A stretch of DNA of 64,000 nt from contig SVPW01000003.1 of NCBI GenBank assembly GCA_015065645.1, forward strand, positions 1 through 64,000. Direction: 5' to 3'. This stretch comes from Oscillospiraceae bacterium. GTDB taxonomy: Bacteria > Bacillota > Clostridia > Oscillospirales > Acutalibacteraceae. How positions within the stretch are numbered: position 1 is the first letter of the stretch; the number at the start of each line of letters is the position of its first letter. The notes beneath the pieces were generated by a model. That model had not been told where the DNA came from, ran no database searches, and saw nothing but the letters and a program-made list of their open reading frames with translations. Positions 1,088 through 5,151 of this stretch are shown in pieces. The position numbers and the translations under genes were made by a program.

Positions 1088-1186
1088 ATGAAGGCTTATG
1101 TTGAAATCGTTAAGTTTGACGTTAAGGACGTAATTACTACAAGCGAAGGCGAATATACTTGCCCGACTGAGGGTGACCTCGACTAA
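1088..1186 (+). CDS. Candidate RiPP precursor peptide, 32 aa: MKAYVEIVKFDVKDVITTSEGEYTCPTEGDLD
   Basis: ATG at 1088 after a gaggtg SD-like sequence, stop TAA 1184-1186. Leader-like 'VEIVKFDVKDVITTS' followed by a short Thr/Cys/Glu/Gly tail; directly upstream of a radical SAM/SPASM gene. Below the length cut of the ORF track. Confidence 0.7.
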   Translation: MKAYVEIVKFDVKDVITTSEGEYTCPTEGDLD

Positions 1187-1195
1187 ACCAATTCG

Positions 1196-1230
1196 AAAAG
1201 GCTGCCTTTAAAAGGCGGCCTTTTTGTTTT
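1196..1230 (+). terminator. Hairpin plus T-tract between precursor and maturase genes (terminator/attenuator)
   Basis: AAAAGGCTGCCTTT / AAAGGCGGCCTTTT stem (one G-U) followed by TTTTTGTTTT. Confidence 0.75.
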
Positions 1231-1260
1231 ATTAAAATCCATATAGAATAGGTGTAATGA

Positions 1261-2619
1261 TTGATTACGATAATTGAAAATGATTCTTTAATAAATAAAA
1301 TTTTAGGAATGCAAAATATAACTGATTCGAAATATCGCTGGAGTTGTTTTACTGTAGTAGTGAAACATAACGATATGATTTTGTTATATAATACACTTAC
1401 TTCTGAAGAAATTGCTATTTCTGAATCTATATACAAATCTGTAGTAGATGAAACGAAACATGAAATTTATAATACTTTGATAAAAAAATGGTTTTTAGTG
1501 CCAATTGATTTCAATGAACAAGAGTTATACAATAGTGTATTCGCTACAGCTGGTTTGTTTGTTAAAAAAAATGGGATAACAAATTATATTATTATGACTA
1601 CTACAGATTGTAACGCTCGTTGTTTTTATTGCTTTGAAAAAGATGTAAAAAAATACTCTATGAGCAAAAAAACTGCTGTAGATGTTGCAGATTTTATTAT
1701 GAAAAAATCCTTGGGACAAAAAGTACAAATACAGTGGTTTGGCGGCGAACCACTATATAACCGCGAGGCAATTGATACAATTTGTAATAGACTCAAAAAC
1801 AATAATATAAATTTTAATAGTATTATGATTACGAATGGCTATTTAATAGATCCATTATCAATCAGTAAAGATGTTCGACTTTGGAATTTGAAGCGTGTTC
1901 AAATAACACTTGATGGCACGGAAAAAATATATAATCGATGTAAAAATTATATATATGAAAGTGGTGTTAATCCATTTTTAAAAGTGGTTAAAAATATTGA
2001 AGCTTTATTAAAAGAAAAAATAAAGGTATCTATACGTTTAAATTTGGATAAGCATAATAAAGAAGATTTGTTTTCTTTAGTTGATTTTTTGAATGACGTG
2101 TTTATAGATTATGTAGAGTATATAAATGTATATGTTTGTTTGTTATATGATGATCGTGGTATAAAGACTATGACTTCGGATGCTCAGACGAGAAAAGATG
2201 GTTATGAGCAGTTAATTAAATTGGAGAATTATATACATTATAAAAAATTATCTAGTAAATCATATCCGCCCAAAAGAATGAGGTTATTTGCGTGTATGGC
2301 TGATATGGAAAATTCTACTACCATATTGCCTGATGGTAATTTAGGTAAATGCGATCATATGTTAAAGGATGAGTTTTGGGGTAATATATATTCTGATTCT
2401 GTTAATGTTGATAATTTCAAAAAATGGCAAGAATATAGATCAACATTAACTCTTTGCAATAGTTGCCCTATGCTTCCTAATTGTTTAAGCGTTAAAAATT
2501 GCCCAGATAATGGTAAATATGATTGTGATGAACAGATTATGGAACGAAAAATCGAAAAATTAAAAAAATCAATGATAAATGCATATGACAATTTTAATAA
2601 ATCTAATATGGGTGAATAA
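1261..2619 (+). CDS. Radical SAM/SPASM peptide maturase
   Basis: CxxxCxxC motif (CNARCFYC) and Cys-rich SPASM-like C-terminus (CMADMENSTTILPDGNLGKCDH ... CNSCPMLPNCLSVKNCPDNGKYDC). TTG start with aggtg SD. Confidence 0.9.
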   Translation: MITIIENDSLINKILGMQNITDSKYRWSCFTVVVKHNDMILLYNTLTSEEIAISESIYKSVVDETKHEIYNTLIKKWFLVPIDFNEQELYNSVFATAGLFVKKNGITNYIIMTTTDCNARCFYCFEKDVKKYSMSKKTAVDVADFIMKKSLGQKVQIQWFGGEPLYNREAIDTICNRLKNNNINFNSIMITNGYLIDPLSISKDVRLWNLKRVQITLDGTEKIYNRCKNYIYESGVNPFLKVVKNIEALLKEKIKVSIRLNLDKHNKEDLFSLVDFLNDVFIDYVEYINVYVCLLYDDRGIKTMTSDAQTRKDGYEQLIKLENYIHYKKLSSKSYPPKRMRLFACMADMENSTTILPDGNLGKCDHMLKDEFWGNIYSDSVNVDNFKKWQEYRSTLTLCNSCPMLPNCLSVKNCPDNGKYDCDEQIMERKIEKLKKSMINAYDNFNKSNMGE

Positions 2620-2623
2620 TTAT

Positions 2624-3340
2624 ATGATGAATTTTATTATGAAAATTGCTGATTTCAATTTCAAAATATCTAATAATTTATTGAATTTTAAAACACGCTT
2701 TAATATGTATTTTACTAATGATAAAAAAATTGATTGTGAGTTATTAGTTACACATAACGATTTGCACAATGAAATATCTTTAAGCGAATTTAAATCTTCT
2801 GATAAATATATAGAGTTTGTATGCATTTCGAGAAAAATTGCTGATTGGCTACCGCTACATAATGCATTTGTGCTTCATTCAGCTACATTTGAAGTTGATG
2901 GCACGGGTGTTGCGTTTGCGGCGCATAGCGGTACGGGAAAGACCACGCATATGAGGTTATGGCAGGAACTTTTGGGTAAGCGTATGACGGTTGTAAATGG
3001 TGACAAGCCTATTGTTCGCTTCTTTGAGGATGAGCCTGAATGTCCTTACGCCTACGGTACACCATGGAACGGTAAAGAAAGGCTTGGATGCAATATGCGT
3101 ACACCGCTAAAGCATATTTGTTTTATTGAACGAAGCGAAACAAATTCCTGTGAACCGATGGACAAAAAGGACGCTGTAGACCTTATGTTCAATCAGGTTT
3201 ATATGCCTACAGATCCGCAAGCAGCGCTTTGTACAATGCAGCTTATTGACCGTTTGCTTTCTTGTTGCAAGCTTTGGAAGATAAGATGTAATATGGAGCC
3301 GAACGCCGCAGAAGTTGCTTACAATACTATTTGGGAGTAA
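2624..3340 (+). CDS. HPr kinase/PEPCK-like P-loop protein (RiPP-associated HprK-like kinase)
   Basis: Walker A 'AHSGTGKTTH', 'NGDKPIVR' and 'YGTPWNGKE' blocks; in-frame ATG at 2624 after the maturase stop. Confidence 0.75.
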   Translation: MMNFIMKIADFNFKISNNLLNFKTRFNMYFTNDKKIDCELLVTHNDLHNEISLSEFKSSDKYIEFVCISRKIADWLPLHNAFVLHSATFEVDGTGVAFAAHSGTGKTTHMRLWQELLGKRMTVVNGDKPIVRFFEDEPECPYAYGTPWNGKERLGCNMRTPLKHICFIERSETNSCEPMDKKDAVDLMFNQVYMPTDPQAALCTMQLIDRLLSCCKLWKIRCNMEPNAAEVAYNTIWE

Positions 3341-3360
3341 TAATTAAAGTAGGAGCATTT

Positions 3361-5151
3361 ATGAAATATATTGATGAGAAATTTAAAGATGAAAAACCCG
3401 AAATAACAGTTGAAAATATAATAAAAAAGCTTGATATCATTGGAATTAAACTTCAGGAAAAGTGGAATGATTCTAAAATTGAAAATTGCTGGAGTACGAT
3501 AATATCTGTAGATGGTAAAATCCCTAGCACCAACGGTAAAGGTATTACTAAGGCATTTGCAAGAGCAAGTGCTTACGGCGAATTTATGGAAAGACTTCAA
3601 AGCGGGCTTTTCTTCTATAAATATCAATCCTTTGAAAACGATGATTCGGTGTATTTACATTCATTTGCTCCGGACAAGCGATATATGTCTAAAGAGGAAC
3701 TGTTGGAAAACAGTGAATGGATGGAGCCTATCGTTAAGAGATACGGTATAACAAAGGAAAATATTGCAGAGCAGTGCCAGATTTATGCCTGCTCTGATAA
3801 AATTCTCACATTGCCTTATTACAGCATTTTTGAGGATGAATATGTTTACCTTCCTGCAGCATTTGCAGAGCATATCTATTCTGCTAACGGATGCTGTGTA
3901 GGTAACACAAGAGAGGAAGCCTGGGTGCATGCTCTTTCTGAAATATTAGAAAGGCACTCAAATATAGAGGTTGTAAAAAACGGCAAGGCAGTACCTGTTA
4001 TCTCACGTGAAGAACTTAAAAAATTCAAAGCGGTAAATGCTATTCTTGAAAGAATAGAAGAACAGGGTATTTATGATGTTGAGGTACTTGATTATTCCTG
4101 TGGTAAAAAGTTTCCGGTTATAGCTACTCGTATAATTAATAAAAAAACCAAAGGTTATCTTGTTAATGTTGGTGCAGACCCTGTATTTGAAATTGCGGTT
4201 GAAAGAACTCTTACAGAGATTTTCCAAGGAAGAAATCTATATGATTTTACTTCCAGACATAATGGGGCTATCCTTAATAAGCTTTCCGATATAAATATTG
4301 CCGATAACATCATTAACCAACTGGAAACGGGCAACGGAATGTATACTGCTGATTTTTTTGCAGATGCCACAGCCGAAAATGATATTCTGTCATTTCCTGA
4401 TAATGTTGATAAGAATAACACTCAGCTGTTGAATTATGTGTTGGATATTTTTAAAAGTTTTAATTTACCTGTTTATGTTCGCAACAATTCTTTTCTGGGC
4501 TTCCCTTGCTATAAATTTATTGTTCCCGGATATTCGGAATCAAGAGGTGAGAGGCTTAGAGAGGCAATTCCGACATATTATTTTGCTGATCGTGCTTCTA
4601 AAACATTACGTAATATTAAAAAGGCTGATATGCCTGCATTGAGCGAATTGCTGACATATCATAAAATGATAGCAAACTTTATAAGCAAGAAGAATAACAT
4701 TAATTATCTTACGGGGCTTCCGCTTTCCTGTGCCACATACAATATGCCGTCTATACATTTTGCTTATGCGGCATTAAAACTTAAAAATTACAATCTTTTT
4801 AATTCTTATATGGATTCTGCCATTGCGTTTACGCCGGATGACAGCGATGAAAAGGATTATTTAATGGCAGTTAAGCAGTGGGTGAATTTCGCTGTTGGCG
4901 GAGTTGAAAAGGAAACCGCTATAACTGTAATAGAAAAATTCTATTTTAAAAATACAGTTGAGCATTTGAAAAAGAATTTGGAAAAAGATGCTTTACTTGA
5001 TGAGTTTTTAATTGAATGTGAGGATTGTAATGCTTGCAAGCATAAAGAAGGTTGTTGCTATAAGAATATTCAGGAAATAATAGCAAAAGCCGGTGCGGAG
5101 TATGCAAAATTCACCCACGGTCAGGATAGAGAAAATTTTAAATTCAATTAA
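3361..5151 (+). CDS. YcaO-domain protein, E. coli YcaO-like architecture with helical C-terminal region and Cys-rich tail
   Basis: TNGKGxTKAxARASAxGExxER (SxxxExxER ATP-binding motif), SANGCCVGNTREEAxxxxLSEILER, and ERTLTEIFQGR resemble the E. coli YcaO sequence; aggag SD upstream of ATG 3361. Confidence 0.88.
   Translation: MKYIDEKFKDEKPEITVENIIKKLDIIGIKLQEKWNDSKIENCWSTIISVDGKIPSTNGKGITKAFARASAYGEFMERLQSGLFFYKYQSFENDDSVYLHSFAPDKRYMSKEELLENSEWMEPIVKRYGITKENIAEQCQIYACSDKILTLPYYSIFEDEYVYLPAAFAEHIYSANGCCVGNTREEAWVHALSEILERHSNIEVVKNGKAVPVISREELKKFKAVNAILERIEEQGIYDVEVLDYSCGKKFPVIATRIINKKTKGYLVNVGADPVFEIAVERTLTEIFQGRNLYDFTSRHNGAILNKLSDINIADNIINQLETGNGMYTADFFADATAENDILSFPDNVDKNNTQLLNYVLDIFKSFNLPVYVRNNSFLGFPCYKFIVPGYSESRGERLREAIPTYYFADRASKTLRNIKKADMPALSELLTYHKMIANFISKKNNINYLTGLPLSCATYNMPSIHFAYAALKLKNYNLFNSYMDSAIAFTPDDSDEKDYLMAVKQWVNFAVGGVEKETAITVIEKFYFKNTVEHLKKNLEKDALLDEFLIECEDCNACKHKEGCCYKNIQEIIAKAGAEYAKFTHGQDRENFKFN

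What the first reader, a model, noticed from the sequence alone, without database searches (positions are those of the whole stretch)
1088..5151. Candidate RiPP locus: short precursor + radical SAM/SPASM + HprK-like kinase + E. coli-type YcaO
Seen: four collinear plus-strand genes between a surface-protein gene and a convergent transporter. Established: SPASM radical SAM enzymes, YcaO enzymes and HprK-like kinases each modify ribosomal peptides in known RiPP systems (sactipeptides/ranthipeptides, azoline or thioamide peptides, and the lasso-precursor kinases PadeK/ThcoK respectively). Inference: all three chemistries may converge on one 32-aa peptide, giving a thioether/C-C crosslinked, phosphorylated and YcaO-modified product. 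I do not recognise this exact combination as a characterised class.
Basis: partly seen in the sequence, partly recalled or inferred. Interest (0 to 1): 0.88.

Follow-up and report, generated by a model that had tools for sequence, protein, structure and literature searches.

The report
Peptide-modifying gene cluster with YcaO
This Clostridia genome carries a conserved gene cluster that very probably makes a small, chemically modified peptide, and in this species and one or two relatives the cluster has added a YcaO enzyme related to the E. coli enzyme that puts sulfur into a ribosomal protein, a combination I could not find described.

Summary
In detail: a 32-aa ORF, a SPASM radical SAM enzyme (rSAM), an HprK-fold protein and an E. 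coli-type YcaO lie collinear at 1088-5151. The small ORF is a real precursor: a DV(I/V)T(T/A)S leader sits directly upstream of the rSAM in 14 of 15 testable related loci, always followed by a Cys-containing tail. The rSAM resembles CteB and TigE, with an RRE-like N-terminus. YcaO is an optional addition: 3 of 70 genus genomes carry this clade, all with the rSAM, directly behind the kinase in two and probably in the third; its eight context-known relatives in the tree stand alone. Two terminators place YcaO in the rSAM-kinase transcription unit. I favour a RiPP in which rSAM crosslinks the core Cys, the kinase acts on Ser/Thr, YcaO (kin of the uL16 thioamidase) modifies the backbone, and the peptidase cuts after TxS. 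The chemistry is inferred, not shown; the kinase has Gly where HprK has its first catalytic Asp. New variant of a known kind.

The parts
1..1070 (+). C-terminal part of a large secreted-type protein (truncated by the contig start); a same-strand secreted-type gene lies 14-179 nt upstream of the peptide in all 15 loci tested
1088..1186 (+). precursor peptide MKAYVEIVKFDVKDVITTS | EGEYTCPTEGDLD (leader | putative core)
   Evidence: conserved leader upstream of rSAM in relatives
1194..1226 (+). intrinsic terminator between precursor and enzyme genes (likely attenuator), -21.5 kcal/mol
   Evidence: (z -5.2); equivalent hairpin in all 13 loci examined, 0 of 130 shuffles
1261..2619 (+). radical SAM/SPASM peptide maturase with RRE-like N-terminal domain (about residues 1-100)
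2624..3340 (+). HprK/PEPCK-fold P-loop kinase-like protein; invariant H85, K106, D127; G126 where HprK has Asp
3361..5151 (+). E. coli-type YcaO with intact ATP/Mg motifs and a C-terminal Cys cluster
5171..5202 (+). intrinsic terminator-like hairpin after YcaO, closing the rSAM-kinase-YcaO transcription unit
21814..22080 (+). PqqD-like peptide chaperone (PF05402, 51.6 bits), detached from the main cluster here
22080..22538 (+). signal-peptidase-I-like (S26/S24) protease, best NCBIfam match TIGR02228 3e-7; one per genome in all 8 genomes tested

Best explanation
A RiPP biosynthetic locus. A 32-aa precursor with a conserved leader (ending DVITTS) and a Cys-containing acidic core is bound through its leader by the RRE-like domain of the rSAM enzyme, which crosslinks the core Cys (most likely a sactipeptide/ranthipeptide-type thioether). 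An HprK-fold enzyme phosphorylates a Ser/Thr of the peptide. In this lineage an E. coli-type YcaO, recruited into the operon from a stand-alone relative, ATP-dependently activates a backbone amide of the same peptide, most likely giving a thioamide (alternatively an azoline at Cys). A detached PqqD chaperone assists, and a signal-peptidase-like protease removes the leader after the small-x-small TxS motif. Shown here: gene content, conservation, synteny, folds, operon boundaries. Inferred: every chemical step, the substrate of YcaO, and the cleavage site.
For: Precursor: leader motif only upstream of rSAM/kinase (17 of 17 in 489 kb); with the divergent G057 copy, 14 of 15 rSAM loci with sequenced upstream DNA. 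Core Cys in 14 of 14 rSAM-linked peptides and 0 of 3 kinase-only peptides, Fisher p 0.0015 (computed by hand; loci not fully independent). rSAM: fold closest to CteB 5why/5wgg and TigE 8vpo over the full length including the N-terminal domain, then SkfB and SuiB; CxxxCxxC and SPASM Cys nearly invariant. Kinase: HprK fold E 3e-6. Conserved set: peptide-rSAM-kinase-PqqD-protease in relatives. YcaO: behind the kinase in G000 and G039, and with GT61 and the protease at the same chromosomal site in G002; these three fall in a 100/99-supported clade that excludes all eight stand-alone relatives in the tree; in the genus the clade occurs only in rSAM-bearing genomes (3 of 70 vs 16 of 70); bounded with rSAM-kinase by two terminators. 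E. coli YcaO is the nearest solved structure (183 bits) and is a thioamide synthetase for uL16 (PMC13063428).
Against: No biochemistry. Core sequences vary too much to point to residues; acidic residues at Cys+3 are only weakly enriched (9 vs 5.5, p 0.075). The two YcaO-bearing precursors share no core feature absent from the others. No TfuA, transporter or immunity gene in the cluster. Kinase lacks the first Asp of the HprK pair (NGD in 27 of 29). Only three YcaO-bearing loci have known context, one across a contig gap.
Confidence: 0.6

Rival explanations
1. The peptide-rSAM-kinase-PqqD-protease set is a RiPP locus, but YcaO is a co-transcribed passenger that modifies another protein, such as ribosomal uL16, as E. 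coli YcaO does.
For: Nearest characterised relative modifies uL16 (PMC13063428); clostridial relatives outside the clade are stand-alone genes with no precursor nearby.
Against: Predicted pI 5.6 (5.1-7.8 for 120 clostridial homologues) versus 4.4 for E. coli YcaO, where acidity marks uL16 enzymes and the less acidic members of its group sit in RiPP contexts (PMC13063428); but stand-alone clostridial ones are equally non-acidic, so pI does not separate them. Clade-specific operon placement at two different chromosomal sites; rare in the genus (4 of 70), unlike a ribosome-maturation gene.
Confidence: 0.17
2. The modified peptide is not a secreted natural product but serves the upstream secreted protein (a co-expressed partner, signal or maturation factor).
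For: A large same-strand secreted-type gene lies 14-179 nt upstream of the peptide in 15 of 15 loci, and 53 of 105 pairs of these proteins are detectably related; no transporter in the cluster; the terminator falls after the peptide, so peptide and secreted protein are probably co-transcribed.
Against: Secreted proteins are very divergent; adjacency could reflect a shared promoter or an insertion site.
Confidence: 0.2
3. The HprK-fold protein is no longer a kinase and works as an ATP- or peptide-binding helper.
For: NGD replaces the DD pair in 27 of 29 aligned sequences, while two distant ones keep NDD; lasso-peptide kinases need His-Lys-Asp-Asp (PMC9266682).
Against: P-loop lysine, His85 and the second Asp are invariant, so strong constraint remains on the active site.
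Confidence: 0.3

Closest known systems
Sactipeptide/ranthipeptide rSAM systems (CteB, PapB, RumMC)
   Same: SPASM rSAM with N-terminal RRE-like domain, short precursor with Cys-containing core; CteB is the best structural match
   Different: Kinase, PqqD and signal-peptidase-like protease are constant partners; no dedicated exporter; cores do not show CX3D or a six-Cys SCIFF pattern
TigE poly-cyclopropylglycine system (8vpo; PMC9062424)
   Same: second-best full-length fold match of the rSAM
   Different: precursor here has no matching repeat; chemistry not implied
SynChlorMet cassette (NCBIfam TIGR04249 ScmC, TIGR04250 ScmE)
   Same: combines SPASM rSAM with an HprK-related protein; TIGR04249 is the kinase's best family hit, TIGR04250 among the rSAM's
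   Different: match to TIGR04249 only 18.2 bits against a cut-off of 125; no paper on it found; YcaO is not part of it as far as I know
Phosphorylated lasso peptides (PadeK, ThcoK, PsmK)
   Same: HprK-like kinase plus PqqD-type protein modify a small precursor (PMC9266682)
   Different: no lasso cyclase or B2 protease seen in the window cluster or in the kinase neighbours scanned; no conserved C-terminal Ser; active site NGD instead of DD
E. coli YcaO / uL16 thioamidase (PMC13063428)
   Same: nearest solved structure, same domain layout, ATP/Mg motifs SxxxExxER, ExxER, RxxxE kept
   Different: pI 5.6 rather than 4.4; in an operon with a precursor and rSAM; C-terminal CxnCxxCxnC cluster, in 118 of 120 clostridial homologues, outside the region aligned to E. 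coli YcaO

Membership tests
RiPP biosynthetic gene cluster (general) | short conserved-leader, variable-core precursor next to modifying enzymes | tested here: met
RiPP biosynthetic gene cluster (general) | RRE or PqqD-type leader-binding domain | tested here: met
   PqqD PF05402; rSAM N-terminal fold matches RRE-bearing CteB/SuiB over full length, RRE not scored with a dedicated model
RiPP biosynthetic gene cluster (general) | precursor is post-translationally modified | not testable with these tools
   needs expression and mass spectrometry
Sactipeptide/ranthipeptide | SPASM rSAM maturase | tested here: met
   NCBIfam equivalog cut-offs for the specific families not reached (TIGR04463 155.6 of 525, PapB NF047865 94.5 of 340)
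Sactipeptide/ranthipeptide | core Cys as thioether donor | tested here: inconclusive
   Cys present in 14 of 14 rSAM-linked cores, absent in 3 of 3 without rSAM; bond not shown
Lasso peptide | asparagine-synthetase-like cyclase and transglutaminase-like B2 | tested here: not met
   no such gene among the ORFs of the cluster or the kinase neighbours scanned in relatives; whole genome not searched for it
HprK-like peptide kinase | HprK/PEPCK fold with P-loop | tested here: met
HprK-like peptide kinase | His-Lys-Asp-Asp catalytic set | tested here: not met
   H85, K106, D127 invariant; partner Asp is Gly126; mapping to HprK is from the sequence pattern, not a residue-level structural alignment
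E. coli-type YcaO | YcaO domain plus C-terminal extension, closest to E. coli YcaO among characterised ones | tested here: met
   NF040716 cut-off not reached (218 of 700)
uL16-modifying YcaO | strongly acidic protein (about pI 4.4), no precursor nearby | tested here: not met
   pI 5.56, precursor in cluster
Thioamitide / YcaO-TfuA RiPP | TfuA partner | tested here: not met
   no TfuA-like gene among cluster ORFs
Azoline (TOMM) cyclodehydratase | SagD-family subtype with partner protein | tested here: not met
   TIGR03604 56.6 bits of 219 needed; no partner gene

The most novel reading that the evidence does not exclude
A RiPP class in which one short peptide is crosslinked by a radical SAM enzyme, phosphorylated by an HprK-fold kinase and thioamidated by a YcaO drawn from the ribosomal-protein-modifying (E. 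coli) lineage without TfuA, then cut by a signal-peptidase-like protease.
Probability: 0.3. Interest if true: 0.82.

Novelty: new variant of a known kind. Interest (0 to 1): 0.62.

Why it matters
It shows an apparent move of an E. coli-type YcaO from stand-alone use into a peptide operon, which makes it possible to ask how YcaO enzymes change substrate. The wider peptide-kinase-PqqD-protease set, present in over half of the genus and in other families of the order, appears to be an undescribed and common RiPP architecture of Clostridia, with the rSAM and YcaO as add-ons. It offers a small, fully listed gene set for heterologous expression.

Tried and rejected
RimO link of YcaO: RimO-type genes occur in all 26 genomes tested with or without YcaO, so no informative correlation. 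pI as a marker: does not separate RiPP-linked from stand-alone clostridial YcaO. Crosslink spacing: no significant Cys-Asp/Glu offset. Genome-contig scan with YcaO found only two stand-alone relatives. Peptide homology search: query too short; a 44-aa relative found one near-identical protein only. Lasso reading rejected for lack of cyclase/B2. Literature: no paper combining YcaO, radical SAM, HPr kinase and precursor peptide in the held library; SynChlorMet none. Contexts of the other clade members (P0001-P0034) could not be fetched.

Full report
Observation. The window is the first 64 kb of contig C39 of a 1.86-Mb, 86%-complete genome. They are followed by a convergent Na+/Ala symporter with a glycine riboswitch. 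An intrinsic terminator lies between the precursor and the rSAM gene (1194-1226, -21.5 kcal/mol; z -5.2 in its context) and another follows YcaO (5171-5202), so rSAM, kinase and YcaO form one transcription unit, and the precursor can be expressed in excess of the enzymes.

The precursor is real. In 36 regions from related genomes plus the window (489 kb, six frames) a regex for the leader motif found 17 small ORFs, all upstream of an rSAM or kinase gene on the same strand. A further copy with a slightly different motif (DIVTES) precedes the rSAM of G057. So 14 of 15 rSAM loci with sequenced upstream DNA carry it; the exception, G462, has an rSAM in another setting, and in G002 the contig starts inside the rSAM gene. 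Every rSAM-linked peptide has one to four Cys in the part after the motif; the three motif-bearing peptides in loci with a kinase but no rSAM have none. This links the Cys to the rSAM, with the caution that the loci are related. A hairpin-plus-T-run follows the peptide in all 13 loci examined (0 of 130 shuffled sequences; 30 of 136 ends of other genes).

The enzymes. The rSAM has CxxxCxxC and SPASM cysteines that are nearly invariant. Its AF2 model (pLDDT 87) matches CteB, TigE, anSME, SkfB and SuiB best, and the matches to CteB and TigE span the N-terminal domain, which has the strand-strand-strand-helix-helix order of an RRE. The kinase gives no Pfam hit, only weak HprK-related NCBIfam hits, but the model (pLDDT 94) matches HprK and PEPCK. 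His85, Lys106 and Asp127 are invariant in 29 sequences, but the residue before Asp127 is Gly in 27 and Asp in 2. From general knowledge of HprK (VADD motif) this is the catalytic Asp; lasso kinases need His-Lys-Asp-Asp (PMC9266682). So activity must be tested. YcaO keeps the ATP/Mg motifs and is closest to E. coli YcaO among solved structures.

What was missed. In relatives the kinase is followed by an about 90-aa PqqD (PF05402) and an about 155-aa signal-peptidase-like protease. In this genome both exist as a pair at 21814-22538, 16.7 kb downstream on the same strand. In G039 the order is peptide-rSAM-kinase-YcaO-PqqD-protease without a break. Each of eight genomes tested has one such protease. 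The motif TxS obeys the small-x-small rule of signal peptidases, so I infer cleavage after it.

How widespread. The kinase family is in 59 of 100 relatives, including other families of the order, and the rSAM in 16 of 70 genus genomes. YcaO (any) is in 4 of 70 genus genomes and rare elsewhere. The three genomes with the RiPP-linked YcaO clade are all among the 16 rSAM genomes (hypergeometric p about 0.01 for co-presence alone, computed by hand; adjacency is much stronger evidence). The fourth, G457, has two YcaOs outside the clade, no rSAM, and no peptide nearby. A maximum-likelihood tree puts the window, G039 and G002 proteins in a 35-member clade (support 100/99) that excludes the eight stand-alone proteins with known context. 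G039 and G002 share one chromosomal site (conserved flanking genes) where G046 and G040 have the cluster without YcaO; the window's site is different. I read this as recruitment of YcaO into an existing RiPP locus. Other accessory genes also vary: GT61 in G002 and G045, ATP-grasp in G040.

Chemistry. E. coli YcaO was recently shown to thioamidate uL16 without TfuA, and less acidic relatives in its network group were noted to lie in RiPP contexts (PMC13063428). The window's YcaO has pI 5.6, not 4.4, and sits in such a context. Thioamidation of the peptide is therefore the first guess, azoline formation the second. The YcaO of this lineage also has a C-terminal CxnCxxCxnC cluster present in 118 of 120 homologues and in the two distant G315 copies; its role is unknown.

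Verdict. A bona fide RiPP locus with an unusual set of enzymes; new variant of a known kind. The three-chemistry product is a reasonable but untested inference.

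Noticed in passing
window 21814-22538 (+): PqqD and signal-peptidase-like protease pair, the detached half of the cluster, 16.7 kb from the kinase.
   Followed up: yes
window 7239-7332 (-): Glycine riboswitch upstream of the Na+/Ala symporter (5231-7162, -).
   Followed up: no
window 46398-46467 (+): Gut-1 RNA (RF01706), an sRNA of unknown function, directly downstream of a tRNA (46288-46361).
   Followed up: no
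window 2999-3007, kinase residue 126: Gly in place of the first Asp of the HprK catalytic pair in 27 of 29 relatives (NGD instead of NDD).
   Followed up: partly
window 5017-5055, YcaO residues 553-565: C-terminal CxnCxxCxnC cluster in 118 of 120 clostridial YcaO homologues; possible metal or Fe-S site.
   Followed up: partly
L076, L082, L083 and other kinase loci: Wider family of kinase-linked small peptides with the same leader motif but no Cys and no rSAM, in other families of the order.
   Followed up: partly
window 1-1070 and equivalents: Large divergent secreted-type protein gene always on the same strand directly upstream of the peptide; L051 copy has a cohesin domain.
   Followed up: partly
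L054 6830-7969, L061 1701-2921, L050 1194-2447: Variable accessory genes in the cluster of relatives: sugar-transfer-associated ATP-grasp (PF14397) and glycosyltransferase 61 (PF04577).
   Followed up: no
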